DNA of 64,000 nt. Source: Haloferax sp. Q22. Lineage in GTDB: Archaea; Halobacteriota; Halobacteria; Halobacteriales; Haloferacaceae. Within the stretch, counting starts at the first letter, position 1; every line of letters begins with the position of its first letter. This document shows, piece after piece, positions 22,320 to 27,507 of the stretch. Made by a program: the position numbers and the translations under genes. Under the pieces are notes generated by a model. The model made no database searches and had not been told where the DNA came from. It saw only the letters and a program-made list of their open reading frames with translations. Location: assembly GCF_001482285.1 (NCBI RefSeq), contig NZ_LOEP01000016.1:186001-250000 (forward strand). The letters are read 5' to 3'.

Positions 22320-24083
22320 ATGTTCAGACAGTTCCGTGAGGAGGTCGAGACGGCGCTCTCTGCGGCGCTCTCGTCGCTCGACCTGCCCACCGACGACCTC
22401 GGGGTCGAGGAACCGCCGGAGGACGTACCCGCGACGCTCGCCTCCAGCGTCGCCTTCCGACTCGCCGGGGTCGTCGGCGCGCCGCCGCCGAAAATCGCCG
22501 CCGACATCGCCGAGGAACTCTCCGTCGAGGGCTACGACTACCTCGCCGCGGTCGACACGCAGGGCCCGTACGTCAACTTCCACGTCTCCGACGCCTACTA
22601 CGACGACACCCTCGACGCCGCCGCGGCCGACGAGGAGTACGGTCGCCTGCCCGCGACCGGCGACAGCGTCGTCGTCGAGCACACGAGCGCGAACCCGACC
22701 GGTCCGGTCCACGTCGGCCGCACCCGCAACCCGGTCATCGGCGACGCCGTCGCCAACCTGCTCGACTTCGCCGGCAACGACGTCGACCGCCACTACTACG
22801 TGAACGACGCCGGTCGCCAGATGGCTGTCTTCACGTGGGCCTACGAGACGTTCGACGAGGACGAACTCGACGGCGAACCCGCGCGCGAGCGCGTCGAGTA
22901 CGACCTCGTCCGTTACTACCGCAAGGGCAACGCCTTCCTCGAGGAGGCCGACCCCGAGGAAGTCGAACAGGCCGAAGCCGAAATCACCGAGATTCTCCAG
23001 GGCATCGAGGAGGGCGACGAAGAGACGTACGCCCGCGTCGAGACCGTGGTCGACCAGGTGCTCGGCGGCATGCGCGAGTGTCTCGAACGCCTCCCCGCGG
23101 AGTTCGACGAGTTCGTCAAGGAGACGCGATTCATGTTCGACGGGAGCACCCGCGACCTCGCCGAGCGCCTCAAGGAGACCGACCACGCCGTCTACGAGGA
23201 AGACGCGTGGCAGCTCGAACTCGACGACTACGGCTTCGAGAAGAATCTCGTGTTCCTCCGGTCGGACGACACCTCGCTGTACACGACGCGCGACCTCGCC
23301 CACCACGAGTGGAAGTTCGACAACTACGACCGCGCCGTGACCGTCCTCGGCGAGGACCACAAACTCCAGTCCGGACAGCTCCGGGCCGCGCTCGACATCC
23401 TCGGCAACGACGTGGACAAACTGGAGAACGTCATCTACTCGTGGGTCAACCTCCCCGGCGGCGAGACGATGTCCACCCGAAAGGGGACGGGCGTCATGCT
23501 CGACGACCTCCTCGACGAGGCCATCGACCGCGCCCGCGACGAGGTCGAGACCCGCCTCGAAGGCCGCACCCGCGACGACGACCTCGGCGAGGCCGACATC
23601 GACCGCATCGCCCGGCAGGTCGGCATCGGCGCGGTTCGCTACGACATCGTCTCCAAACAGCCCACGAAGACCATCACCTTCGAGTGGGACCAGGCGCTCA
23701 ACTTCGAGGCCCAGTCCGCGCCCTACATCCAGTACGTCCACGCGCGCTGTTGCGGCATCGCCAACGAGGCGGCCGCCGCCGGCCTCGACGCGAACGAGGT
23801 CGACCCCGCCGTGCTGACGACCGACGCCGAGCGCGACCTACTGGCGACCATCGCGCGGTTCCCCGCGGTCGTCGAGGCCGCGGCCGACGACCTCGAACCC
23901 CACACCGTGGCGACGTTCGCCCGCGAACTCGCCGAGGTGTTCAACACCTTCTACCGCGAGTGCCCCGTGCTCGACGCCGACGAGGAGGTCGGCGCGGCCC
24001 GCCTCGCGCTCGTCGAAGCCTCGCGGAACGCGGTGGCGAACGCGCTCTCCATCGTGGGCGTGGAAGCGCCCGAGTCGATGTGA
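22320..24083 (+). CDS. argS: Arginyl-tRNA synthetase
   Basis: 587 residues, class I synthetase of normal length. An N-terminal Add-1 domain (about 1-110, [11 protein letters not shown]) precedes [19 protein letters not shown], the HIGH region, which here reads HVGR. The catalytic domain contains [19 protein letters not shown], and [21 protein letters not shown] replaces KMSKS as usual for ArgRS. The DALR anticodon-binding domain (about 460-587) ends VEAPESM. TATA-like element about 25 nt upstream, so leaderless. Confidence 0.97.
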
Positions 24084-24128: not shown

Positions 24129-24266
24129 TCAGAAGAAAAGCGGGAGTGCCGCGGCCCCGGCGAGGAGCGACCCGCCGACCGAGAAGACGACGGCGGCACC
24201 GCTGCCGAGCGCGAGGACGAGAAACAACACTATCCACCAGAAGGGAACGGACTCAGAGTCTGCCAT
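24129..24266 (-). CDS. 45-residue single-pass membrane protein
   Basis: MADSESVPFWWIVLFLVLAL opens a frame with one strong hydrophobic helix and ends AAALPLFF. It lies 39 nt downstream of the minD4-like gene on the same strand and could be co-transcribed. No family recognised; the clean start, acidic N-terminus and helix favour a real gene. Confidence 0.55.
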   Translation of the reverse strand: MADSESVPFWWIVLFLVLALGSGAAVVFSVGGSLLAGAAALPLFF

Positions 24267-24305
24267 AGAGGGCTTTCCGCAGACGCGACTAAAAGGCCTT
24301 CCCGT

Positions 24306-26108
24306 TTAGCCGAGGAAGCGACTGAAGAACCCCTTTTTCTTCTCGTCGCGCTCGTCGTCGTCGAACGACTCGACCTCCTCGACGAGCGAGGTGGTGTAGA
24401 CGCCCTCCTCGTCGCCGCCGGCTTCGGGCGATTCGTCGGCGTCAGCATCAGTGTCGGCGGTGCTCGGCTCGGCCTCGGCGACGAGGGGTTCGTCCGCGCC
24501 GAGCGCGTCCGTCTCCTCGGCGTCGGGATCGAAGTCCGCAGGGACGGACTCCGCGGATTCGGAATCCTCAGCTTCGGACCCCTCAGTCACCGGGTCGGCA
24601 TCGTCCGCCCGCCCCTCGGGAGCCTCGACGGCGTCGTCGGACGGTGAACTGGGCGACAGGTCGCCGACCGACTCCTCTTCGACCGCCCCTTCAGCGAGCG
24701 GGTCCGCATCCGTCGCACCGGCGTCGGCGTCGACATCCAAGGCGGCCTCGTCGGCGGTCGAGGTGCCGCGAGTGACCGCTTCGAGGTCCGCCGCCAGCGG
24801 GTCACTCTCCGGTTCCACGTCGCCGACCGGTTCGGGGTCGGCGACCATCGAGTCGTCGGACGTGTCCGCCGCCAACGGGTCGGCCGGCGCGTCGTCATCA
24901 CCGGCTTCGGCGGCGGCCTGACGAGCGTCTGGGGCTTCGACGACATCGTCGGGTTCGACGGCGTCGTCACCGCCCATCGGGTCGGCGACTGCATCCGTTT
25001 CGACCGCCGGTTCGCCCGGCTCCTCGGCGGGGTCCGCGTCGAGTTCGGCGGAGTCGTCCGACGCCTCGACGGAGCCGCCGGAGAACGGAATCGACGCCTC
25101 AAGGTCGTCGTCCGGTTCGGGGGCGTCAATGGTCTCGGCCGCCGACTCTGGGTCCGTGTCAGTGGTCTCGGCTTCGGCGTCGGGTTCCGGTTCCGGCTCG
25201 GACTCCGCTTCGGGGGCTGCATCGACCTGAACGACCGACGTGTGCTCACTCTCCTCCGGCGTGTCCGTTTCGTCGTCGGCCGTGCCGTCGTCGCTGGCCA
25301 CGTCGGAAGCTGATTCCGCGGTGGCCGCCGGTTCGGGTTCCGTGTCCGACTCGTCCGCGGTGGCCTCGGGCTCCACCGAATCGACCGCATCGTCCGGAAT
25401 CGGGACCGGCTTACCGGTGAGCGCTTCGGCGAGGGCGCGGTAGCCCGCGGCCGCGATGCTGTCGGGCGAGCGGGCGACGACCGGAACCTGCGTGCTGAGC
25501 GCCTCGCGGATGGCCGGGTCCTCGGGGACGACGGCGATGACGCCAGCGTCGAGGAGCGAGGCGACCACGTCGGCGTTCGGGTTCGACTGGTTAACGCGCG
25601 TGAGGACGACGCCGACCACGTCAGCGCCGATGCGCTCGCCGAGCTGTCGGGTCTTTTCGGTGTCGCCGAGCGCCTCGCGCTCGGTCGTCGAGACCAAGAC
25701 GACCTCGTCGGCGAGCTTCAGCGGGACGAAGGTGTCGTCACTCAGCCCCGCGCCGGTGTCGATGATGACGATATCGTAGCTCGCTTCGAGCGCCGAGACG
25801 ACCGGTTCGAGCTCCTTCGCGTTCGCCGTCGCGAACGCTTCGAGGGCGTTCGAGCCGGGGAGCACCGAGAGTCCTACCGGTCCCTCGTAGACGGCCGCCT
25901 CGACCGCCGACTCGCCTGTCAATACGTCGTGAAGCGTCGCCCCATCCGGGTCGACGCCGAGCGCGCCGGCGAGATTCGGCATCCCGAGGTCACCGTCGAC
26001 GACGACGACATCGTGACCGGCCATCGCGAGCGTCGTCCCGAGGTTGGCCGTGGTCGTCGTCTTTCCAACCCCGCCTTTCGCGCTGGCAACTGCGTACACC
26101 CGGGCCAT
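24306..26108 (-). CDS. minD4: MinD-like ATPase with long acidic tail (MinD4 type)
   Basis: 600 residues. Residues 1-250 are a ParA/MinD ATPase: deviant Walker A KGGVGKTTT at about 10-18, VVVDGDLGMPNLAGAL, IIDTGAGLSDDTFVPL and LTRVNQSNPNADVV. Residues 260-585 are a low-complexity tail of Asp, Glu, Ala, Ser and Pro with recurring ADPLA, DADP and DSPE-like words. The end DDDERDEKKKGFFSRFLG is a basic-hydrophobic helix suited to membrane or partner contact. The long tail matches the oscillating MinD4 that positions archaella and chemoreceptors in Haloferax volcanii. ATG 26108 gives the usual MARVYAVASAKGG start. Confidence 0.9.
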   Translation of the reverse strand: MARVYAVASAKGGVGKTTTTANLGTTLAMAGHDVVVVDGDLGMPNLAGALGVDPDGATLHDVLTGESAVEAAVYEGPVGLSVLPGSNALEAFATANAKELEPVVSALEASYDIVIIDTGAGLSDDTFVPLKLADEVVLVSTTEREALGDTEKTRQLGERIGADVVGVVLTRVNQSNPNADVVASLLDAGVIAVVPEDPAIREALSTQVPVVARSPDSIAAAGYRALAEALTGKPVPIPDDAVDSVEPEATADESDTEPEPAATAESASDVASDDGTADDETDTPEESEHTSVVQVDAAPEAESEPEPEPDAEAETTDTDPESAAETIDAPEPDDDLEASIPFSGGSVEASDDSAELDADPAEEPGEPAVETDAVADPMGGDDAVEPDDVVEAPDARQAAAEAGDDDAPADPLAADTSDDSMVADPEPVGDVEPESDPLAADLEAVTRGTSTADEAALDVDADAGATDADPLAEGAVEEESVGDLSPSSPSDDAVEAPEGRADDADPVTEGSEAEDSESAESVPADFDPDAEETDALGADEPLVAEAEPSTADTDADADESPEAGGDEEGVYTTSLVEEVESFDDDERDEKKKGFFSRFLG

Positions 26109-26262
26109 AATTCCAACGTCGAAGTCCACCCGTGACAGCCACATAAATGTTCTCCGACCGCGCTCGTCTCGAAGTCGGGTCGTAGGGCGGCTCGTGCGGC
26201 GGGATACCGCGGAACGTGACCAGTCAAAGGTTACTTAGCCGCTGGAGGGACTAGGTGGAGTG

Positions 26263-27507
26263 ATGAGTAGCGACGCCGAGGAGGCGAGCGAGGACCGCCG
26301 AAAGTACGAATTCAAGAAGGTCATCGAGGACCTGCGAGAGTACGAAGGGTCAGGAACGCAGCTCGTCACCATCTACATCCCCGAAGACAAGCAGATTTCC
26401 GACGTGGTCGAACACGTCATCACAGAGCACAGCGAAGCGTCTAACATCAAATCGAAGCAGACGCGAACGAACGTCCAAGACGCCCTGACGAGCATCAAGG
26501 ACCGTCTCCGTTACTACGACACCTTCCCACCGGACCGCGGTATCGTCATGTTCTCCGGTGCGGTCAACTCCGGCGGCGGCCAGACCGACATGGTCACGAA
26601 GGTGCTGGAGAGCCCGCCGGAGCCGATTCAGTCGTTCCGGTACCACTGCGACTCGAACTTCCTCACCGGACCGCTCGAGGACATGCTCATGGACAAGGGC
26701 CTGTTCGGGCTCATCGTCCTCGACCGCCGCGAGGCCAACGTCGGCTGGCTCAAGGGCAAGCGCGTCGAGCCGGTCAAGAGCGCCTCGTCGCTCGTCCCCG
26801 GGAAGCAGCGCAAAGGTGGTCAGTCCGCCCAGCGTTTCGCCCGCCTCCGCCTCGAAGCCATCGACAACTTCTATCAAGAGGTCGCCGGCATGGCGAACGA
26901 CCTGTTCGTCCCCAAGCGACACGAGATGGACGGCATCCTCGTGGGCGGCCCCTCGCCGACGAAAGACGAGTTCCTCGACGGAGACTACCTCCACCACGAA
27001 CTGCAGGACCTCGTCGTCGGGAAGTTCGACGTGGCCTACACCGACGAGTCCGGCCTCTACGACCTCGTCGACGCCGGTCAGGACGCGCTGGCCGACCAGG
27101 AGGTCATGAAGGACAAAAAGCAGATGGAGGAGTTCTTCGAGAAGCTCCACCGCGGCAACGAGTCCACCTACGGGTTCGAGGCGACCCGGAAGAACCTCGT
27201 GATGGGGTCGGTCGACCGCCTCCTCATCTCCGAGGACCTCCGAAAGGATATCGCCATCTACGACTGCGACGGCCAAGAGGAGTACGAACTCGTCGACCAC
27301 CGTCACAACACGCCCACCCACGAGTGCGAAGGCGGCTCGGAGGCCGAACTGAAAGAGCGCGAGGACGTCATCGAGTGGCTCATGGACCTCGCCGACCAGC
27401 GCGGCACCGAGACGAAGTTCATCAGCACGGACTTCGAGAAAGGCGAACAGCTCTACGACGCGTTCGGCGGTATCGCCGGCATTCTCCGGTACTCCACCGG
27501 CGTCTAA
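26263..27507 (+). CDS. prf1: Peptide chain release factor aRF1
   Basis: 414 residues. It recognises all three stop codons and triggers peptide release. The codon-reading motif NIKS is in EASNIKSKQTR (about 60-70), and the catalytic GGQ is in GKQRKGGQSAQRF (about 183-195). The C-terminal domain contacts aRF3/ABCE1. GTG 26260 directly precedes ATG 26263 in frame; ATG is chosen. Confidence 0.97.
   Translation: MSSDAEEASEDRRKYEFKKVIEDLREYEGSGTQLVTIYIPEDKQISDVVEHVITEHSEASNIKSKQTRTNVQDALTSIKDRLRYYDTFPPDRGIVMFSGAVNSGGGQTDMVTKVLESPPEPIQSFRYHCDSNFLTGPLEDMLMDKGLFGLIVLDRREANVGWLKGKRVEPVKSASSLVPGKQRKGGQSAQRFARLRLEAIDNFYQEVAGMANDLFVPKRHEMDGILVGGPSPTKDEFLDGDYLHHELQDLVVGKFDVAYTDESGLYDLVDAGQDALADQEVMKDKKQMEEFFEKLHRGNESTYGFEATRKNLVMGSVDRLLISEDLRKDIAIYDCDGQEEYELVDHRHNTPTHECEGGSEAELKEREDVIEWLMDLADQRGTETKFISTDFEKGEQLYDAFGGIAGILRYSTGV

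What the first reader, a model, noticed from the sequence alone, without database searches (positions are those of the whole stretch)
24129..26108. MinD4 with 330-residue acidic tail and a neighbouring 45-residue membrane protein
The ATPase ends in a long disordered acidic region and a basic-hydrophobic terminus (KKKGFFSRFLG). The small single-pass protein encoded 39 nt downstream could be an unnoticed membrane partner for the polar oscillation system, which lacks a known MinE in archaea.
Basis: inference. Interest (0 to 1): 0.5.

Follow-up and report, generated by a model that had tools for sequence, protein, structure and literature searches.

The report
Conserved membrane microprotein gene beside minD4
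Next to the gene for the oscillating archaeal protein MinD4 lies a real, widely conserved gene for a tiny membrane protein, but that gene often survives where MinD4 is gone, and MinD4 often survives without it, so it is probably not MinD4's missing partner.

Summary
In a Haloferax genome, minD4 (24306-26108, minus strand) encodes a MinD ATPase, a 341-residue acidic tail predicted disordered, and a C-terminal DEKKKGFFSRFLG resembling the membrane-targeting helix of E. coli MinD. A 45-codon ORF starts 39 nt downstream. The ORF is a real gene: found in 15 of 15 Haloferax genomes, 96 of 170 in the family (E <= 1e-7) and 129 of 392 in the order (E <= 1e-3). It shows purifying selection, is predicted as one transmembrane helix, and has a promoter-like signal of its own. 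Three relatives with glycosylation-sequon tails point to N-terminus inside, C-terminus outside. No Pfam, NCBIfam or PDB family matched convincingly.

The interpretation, a missing MinE-like partner, is not supported. The gene sits in an old block aRF1-minD4-smORF-argS that comes apart both ways. In 21 of 84 loci minD4 is not beside it, and 19 of those 21 genomes showed no MinD4-grade match anywhere. Several genera keep minD4 without it. minD4 goes with archaellin genes; the smORF does not (37 of 59 with it, 13 of 21 without). I read it as an independently transcribed membrane microprotein, probably a helper helix of another membrane complex. A facultative MinD4 link is not excluded.

The parts
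24129..24266 (-). smORF: 45-aa predicted single-pass membrane microprotein (helix about residues 9-29)
   Evidence: 15 of 15 genus genomes, pN/pS 0.32, AlphaFold2 helix 9-29, profile hits across the order
24267..24305 (-). 39-nt spacer with a promoter-like signal for the smORF: CGGGAA (24299-24304) and TTTTA (24290-24294, 24-28 nt before the ATG)
   Evidence: A+T peak 0.91 at -27 in 93 upstream regions, same peak in 16 minD4-less loci
24306..26108 (-). minD4, 600 aa
   Evidence: TIGR01969 210.9 bits, cut-off 201.75; PDB 1hyq E 8.5e-45
25389..26108 (-). MinD4 ATPase domain (residues 1-240)
   Evidence: AlphaFold2 pLDDT mostly 90 or more over 1-235; KGGVGKT invariant in 28 aligned sequences
24345..25367 (-). 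MinD4 acidic tail (residues 248-588), predicted disordered
   Evidence: 36% D+E, 0 K; pLDDT about 40-50
24309..24344 (-). MinD4 C-terminal membrane-targeting-like helix (residues 589-600)
   Evidence: compare E. coli MinD C-terminus; similar end in 55 of 63 orthologues
22320..24083 (+). argS, convergent neighbour, most constant neighbour of the smORF
   Evidence: TIGR00456; within 250 nt in 72 of 84 loci
26260..27507 (+). aRF1 (peptide chain release factor), divergent from minD4; other edge of the conserved block
   Evidence: TIGR03676

Best explanation
The ORF downstream of minD4 is a genuine, independently transcribed single-pass membrane microprotein of haloarchaea (core about 33-50 aa, N-terminus inside, C-terminus outside), for which I found no description. 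It is an ancestral neighbour of minD4 in the block aRF1-minD4-smORF-argS, not a dedicated MinD4 partner. Shown by comparison: conservation, reading-frame selection, a promoter-like signal of its own, double dissociation from minD4, no association with archaellin genes in the sample. Inferred: it works as a small helper or stabilising helix in a larger membrane complex unrelated to motility, packing through its conserved interfacial W start and Gly-rich helix. MinD4 itself most likely reaches the membrane with its own C-terminal targeting helix, held off the ATPase by the acidic linker.
For: Conservation: 15 of 15 genus genomes, 96 of 170 family genomes at E <= 1e-7 (my count of rows), 129 of 392 order genomes at E <= 1e-3. 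Selection: pN/pS 0.32, 20/10/33 variable columns by codon position. Promoter-like signal in 93 upstream regions and in 16 minD4-less loci. Kept without adjacent minD4 in 21 of 84 loci, and 19 of those 21 genomes lack a MinD4-grade match; at least 7 changes of minD4 state among smORF-bearing rows of an argS tree. minD4 without the smORF. Archaellin in 4 of 21 smORF-only genomes and 33 of 38 with both; 37 of 59 smORF+ against 13 of 21 smORF-. Topology: all tail Asn in sequons, 20 of 20, 19 of 19, 11 of 11, in three relatives.
Against: minD4 is directly upstream in most loci (63 of 84; all 11 f12 loci read), often 38-45 nt away, and this may be more than inertia. Several smORF-only genomes are incomplete drafts (14 of the 21 are at least 90% complete). 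In three g87 genomes and G431 a MinD4-grade match exists elsewhere in the genome, in G393 about 2.9 kb away. No partner complex was identified, no protein-level evidence was seen, and the helper-helix mechanism is a guess by analogy.
Confidence: 0.6

Rival explanations
1. Dedicated or facultative MinD4 membrane partner: the microprotein binds membrane-bound MinD4 through its acidic N-terminus or its helix and modulates its residence time or polar caps, as MinE does functionally but without homology.
For: Directly downstream of minD4, same strand, in 63 of 84 loci and 11 of 13 more, over several families; N-terminus predicted inside, where MinD4 is; no MinE-like partner is known in H. volcanii (PMC11621097, passages).
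Against: Kept in 19 of 21 smORF-only genomes with no MinD4-grade match, 17 of these 21 without archaellin; minD4 kept without it in several genera; in the 73 loci with both genes I saw no case where the pair had moved together away from both argS and aRF1 (a few stretches were too short to tell); own promoter-like signal.
Confidence: 0.2
2. Small accessory subunit of a respiratory complex: the helix resembles the N-terminal helix of CcoP (FixP_N) and would pack on an oxidase.
For: FixP_N is the most frequent weak Pfam match (14 of 54 members, best E 0.0026), over the start of the helix.
Against: The three members shown with FixP_N score 11-15 bits against a cut-off of 24.9, over about 17-20 residues; other unrelated membrane helices match weakly too. 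Co-occurrence with oxidases was not tested.
Confidence: 0.07
3. The conserved stretch acts as DNA or RNA (promoter, insulator or 3' region between convergent genes) and the ORF is incidental.
For: The spacer is as conserved as the ORF within Haloferax.
Against: Amino-acid conservation across families with third-position change, low pN/pS, coherent single-helix prediction, C-terminal sequon extensions.
Confidence: 0.03

Closest known systems
Haloferax volcanii MinD4 (HVO_0322), Nussbaum et al. 2020 (seen only as cited in PMC11621097 and PMC11588486; the 2020 paper itself not seen)
   Same: MinD ATPase of Haloferax with an extended C-terminal tail. That the window gene is this orthologue is inferred from genus and tail; no named H. 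volcanii record was compared.
   Different: Nothing essential in the ATPase. The passages I read do not mention the MinD-type targeting helix at the end of MinD4's tail or the downstream ORF; the original paper may.
E. coli MinD/MinE (NC_000913)
   Same: MinD ends in the same kind of helix (EEEKKGFLKRLFGG), and a small gene lies directly downstream of minD.
   Different: The smORF product has no MinE match in Pfam or NCBIfam at the thresholds used, is about half as long, and is predicted to be a transmembrane helix.
HVO_0596, gene downstream of H. volcanii minD2 (PMC11588486, passages)
   Same: Conserved gene of unknown function next to a minD, proposed as its partner.
   Different: HVO_0596 is reported as probably in one operon with minD2, predicted to bind it (AlphaFold 3 ipTM 0.83), yet its deletion had no growth, shape or motility phenotype. 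The smORF has its own promoter-like signal and is not known to have been tested.

Membership tests
MinD (ParA/MinD ATPases) | Deviant Walker A KGGxGKT | tested here: met
   K11-T17 invariant in 28 aligned sequences
MinD (ParA/MinD ATPases) | Curated archaeal MinD model above cut-off | tested here: met
   TIGR01969 210.9 bits, cut-off 201.75; best PDB sequence match 1hyq
MinD (ParA/MinD ATPases) | C-terminal amphipathic membrane-targeting helix | tested here: met
   By sequence resemblance to E. coli MinD only; AlphaFold2 shows only three helical residues there at low confidence; membrane binding itself not testable
MinD (ParA/MinD ATPases) | ATP-dependent dimerisation and pole-to-pole movement | not testable with these tools
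   Reported for H. volcanii MinD4 in PMC11621097 (passages); movement there does not need the Walker motifs
MinE | Match to a MinE family model | tested here: not met
   No MinE model among matches of the smORF or of its 54 relatives at E <= 1
MinE-like functional partner of MinD4 (no homology required) | Present when, and only when, MinD4 is present | tested here: not met
   19 of 21 smORF-only genomes without a MinD4-grade match; minD4 without smORF
MinE-like functional partner of MinD4 (no homology required) | Binds MinD4 and alters its dynamics | not testable with these tools
   No complex prediction with interface scores and no experiment available
FixP_N / CcoP N-terminal helix (PF14715) | Score above the gathering cut-off of 24.9 bits | tested here: not met
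   11-15 bits in the three of six smORF relatives that matched; best E 0.0026 among 54 members

The most novel reading that the evidence does not exclude
In the lineages that keep both genes, including Haloferax, the microprotein is a membrane-embedded, non-homologous modulator of MinD4, recruited from an older general membrane role; it would supply the ATPase-independent part of MinD4's pole-to-pole movement.
Probability: 0.12. Interest if true: 0.7.

Novelty: new member of a known kind. Interest (0 to 1): 0.35.

Why it matters
What drives MinD4 oscillation in archaea is open, and a conserved neighbour is a tempting answer. The comparison shows that this neighbour comes apart from MinD4 and, in the sample, from motility, which lowers its priority as a partner and makes it a conserved haloarchaeal membrane microprotein in its own right. 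A second point bears on published work: MinD4's last 12 residues look like a MinD membrane-targeting helix, so a truncation of the tail would remove linker and membrane anchor together. Separating the two is a simple experiment.

Tried and rejected
Spurious ORF: rejected. Expression only through minD4: not needed, since the spacer holds BRE-like and TATA-like elements at leaderless spacing, also where minD4 is absent; no random-ORF control was run, the 15 Haloferax sequences are near-identical, and smaller A+T peaks occur at -40/-39 (the minD4 stop codon in Haloferax), -10 and -1. A diverged smORF missed by the profile downstream of minD4: looked for by hydropathy in 14 loci of non-hit genera (one, L101, ends with its contig inside minD4; in the others no ORF under 130 aa with a membrane-like stretch within 400 nt) and in 20 more: a 33-aa version in f12 genome G220 (already a hit), a 67-aa membrane ORF in L232, a different 74-76-aa ORF in three f9 loci, none in the other 15. 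The profile census is a lower bound. minD4 elsewhere in the 21 smORF-only genomes: G431 and G393 only. Relatives outside the order: all 14 positives among 294 genomes sampled from the phylum lie in the order. PDB, Pfam, NCBIfam: nothing convincing. I thought of folding a read-through fusion of MinD4 and the smORF and did not, since no interface score would be returned. The MinD4 model was not sent to fold search.

Literature: searches for HVO_0225, HVO_0322, HVO_0321A/0322A/0321/0323 (the last found 0 papers), MinD4, small proteome, MinD/MinE/archaea/membrane targeting. No listing or passage that I saw describes this ORF. The H. volcanii ribosome-profiling paper (Hadjeras et al. 2023) is not held and no supplementary file could be read, so prior annotation or detection is not excluded.

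Selection of rows: the 84 loci are all 64 hits outside family f1 with E <= 2e-4 (one per genome), 16 f1 loci chosen to span genera, and 4 f1 loci taken because minD4 seemed missing. Among the 64, 17 lack minD4 beside the smORF. Twelve weaker hits outside f1 were read after the first check of this report: minD4 directly upstream in all 10 of family f12, and in neither of 2 of genus g87, whose genomes have a MinD4-grade match elsewhere. Some lengths under 31 aa come from a nearest-start rule that picked GTG; the true start may be upstream. The 80 genomes were chosen by hand. G194 was first counted as minD4-only and moved to 'both', which changes the counts slightly and the conclusion not at all. 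One search counts include chance hits in long frames (G235, G053).

Full report
The observation. The window lies in a Haloferax genome (G000, contig C8; the near relatives carry Haloferax names). On the minus strand, minD4 runs 26108 to 24306 (600 aa) and is followed after 39 nt by a 45-codon ORF, 24266 to 24129. The flanking genes are argS (22320-24083, plus strand, convergent with the ORF) and aRF1 (26260-27507, plus strand, divergent from minD4).

MinD4. The first 235 residues are a MinD ATPase: TIGR01969 scores 210.9 bits against a cut-off of 201.75, the best PDB sequence match is 1hyq at E 8.5e-45, and KGGVGKT is invariant in 28 aligned sequences. AlphaFold2 gives most of this domain pLDDT above 90 and the tail mostly 40-50. 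The tail (248-588) has 65 D, 58 E, no K and 4 R in 341 residues. The end, DEKKKGFFSRFLG, resembles the end of E. coli MinD, EEEKKGFLKRLFGG. A comparable end, by a loose pattern of mine, was found in 55 of 63 orthologues that lie upstream of a smORF; 6 of the 8 without it belong to family f7. Length from the match start runs from 273 to 645 aa over the same 63, so both ends are kept and the linker drifts. PMC6803595 (passages) describes the MinD membrane-targeting sequence and cites a 2002 paper whose title says that the motif is conserved in archaea. PMC11621097 (passages) says that truncation of MinD4's extended tail causes motility defects and that no clear MinE equivalent is known. Such a truncation would remove linker and targeting helix together. 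That the linker is a flexible spacer for the helix is inference.

The small ORF is a gene. It was found in 15 of 15 genomes of the genus and in 11 of 11 named Haloferax loci. Within the genus the pooled raw pN/pS is 0.32, and 20, 10 and 33 of 45 columns vary at codon positions 1, 2 and 3. A profile of 13 rows found it in 96 of 170 genomes of the family at E <= 1e-7 (my count from the rows; the printed tally, 143 of 170 at E <= 1, includes chance hits). A profile of 54 rows found it in 129 of 392 genomes sampled from the order at E <= 1e-3, a few being chance hits inside longer frames. In 294 genomes sampled from the phylum all 14 positives lie in the order. Some versions are shorter and diverged (33-35 aa in family f12), so these are lower bounds. 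Across 54 sequences W11 is invariant and F15, L18, G21, G31 and G32 are nearly so. AlphaFold2 predicts one long helix, residues 9-29. No curated family covers it.

Its promoter-like signal. In 93 upstream regions with an ATG start, A+T content reaches 0.91 at -27 (0.76 and 0.80 at -28 and -26) and 0.85 and 0.78 at -34 and -33, where most positions lie between 0.15 and 0.55; lesser peaks occur at -40/-39, -10 and -1. That is the layout of a haloarchaeal TATA box and BRE for a transcript that starts at the ATG (layout recalled, not from a call; no random-ORF control run). The same -28 to -26 peak appears in the 16 minD4-less loci with an ATG start. The minD4-smORF gap is 38-45 nt in 33 of 63 loci (range 26-224), about what such a promoter needs.

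Topology. Three relatives in family f5 carry C-terminal extensions in which every Asn lies in an N-X-S/T sequon (20 of 20, 19 of 19, 11 of 11; shuffled means 4.8, 4.8, 2.7). This indicates exposure to the external glycosylation machinery, hence C-terminus out and the acidic N-terminus in. For the Haloferax protein this is inference from relatives.

Does it belong to MinD4? I read 84 smORF loci (selection told in Tried and rejected). minD4 lies directly upstream on the same strand in 63; argS is found downstream in 79 and within 250 nt in 72. Thirteen loci read later add 11 with minD4, all of family f12, and 2 without, both of genus g87. Of the 21 loci without minD4 in the first set, 15 still have argS within 250 nt and 15 have aRF1 within 400 nt: minD4 has dropped out of the block, or was never there, and the smORF is present. 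A genome-wide search of these 21 found a MinD4-grade match (E <= 1e-38) only in G431 and in G393 (there about 2.9 kb from the smORF, other strand); 7 had no MinD match at E <= 1e-12; 14 of the 21 genomes are at least 90% complete. On an argS tree of 85 rows the minD4 state changes at least 7 times among smORF-bearing rows (many forks weakly supported). The reverse holds too: minD4 stands without any such ORF in 13 readable loci of non-hit genera and in 15 of 20 further loci, in 6 of them with argS only 4-51 nt after minD4. minD4 itself is widespread (330 of 392 genomes at E <= 1e-38).

Motility. Archaellin (PF01917) was found in 4 of 21 smORF-only genomes, 33 of 38 with both genes, 12 of 17 with minD4 only, and 1 of 4 with neither (grouping corrected for G194). 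MinD4+ 45 of 55 against MinD4- 5 of 25 differ (Fisher p = 2e-7; also if G431 and G393 are counted as MinD4+); smORF+ 37 of 59 against smORF- 13 of 21 do not (p = 1). The sample was hand-picked and its species are related, so these figures describe rather than test. They fit MinD4's reported motility role and give no such role to the smORF.

Verdict. The proposed role as the missing partner of MinD4 oscillation is not supported by its distribution, though a role in genomes that keep both genes, Haloferax included, is not excluded; the later f12 loci, all with minD4, are the best hint in that direction. The nearest precedent, HVO_0596 beside minD2, was conserved and predicted to bind, yet its deletion had no phenotype (PMC11588486, passages). 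I expect a general membrane helper role with an unknown partner.

Noticed in passing
L233 1163-1390 (+), also L234 and L235: In three f9 genomes a MinD-like gene without an acidic tail is followed after 4-16 nt by a 74-76-aa ORF with one membrane helix and a coiled-coil-like stretch (weak Pfam matches DUF5798 8e-6, DivIC 4e-4, both under cut-off). A different candidate MinD neighbour.
   Followed up: partly
L225 2263-2796 (-); gaps of similar size in L226-L229: In f7 genomes about 0.9-1 kb lies between minD4 and argS; in L225 it holds a 177-aa ORF with a lipobox-like start, on the same strand as minD4, in the place of the smORF.
   Followed up: no
L170, L188, L193 (family f5, genus g67): smORF relatives with long low-complexity C-terminal extensions full of N-glycosylation sequons.
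   Followed up: yes
L135, L137, L138, L140, L144, L148, L154 (family f17, genus g53): The smORF frame runs on into the antisense strand of the argS 3' end (84-85 aa), so the convergent coding regions overlap by about 130 nt.
   Followed up: no
L156, L160, L166, L168, L145, L151 (family f7), also L225-L229: Syntenic MinD4 orthologues of f7 are about 280-340 aa and lack the MinD-type C-terminal helix; those of L225-L229 share the end SSAITEAES instead.
   Followed up: no
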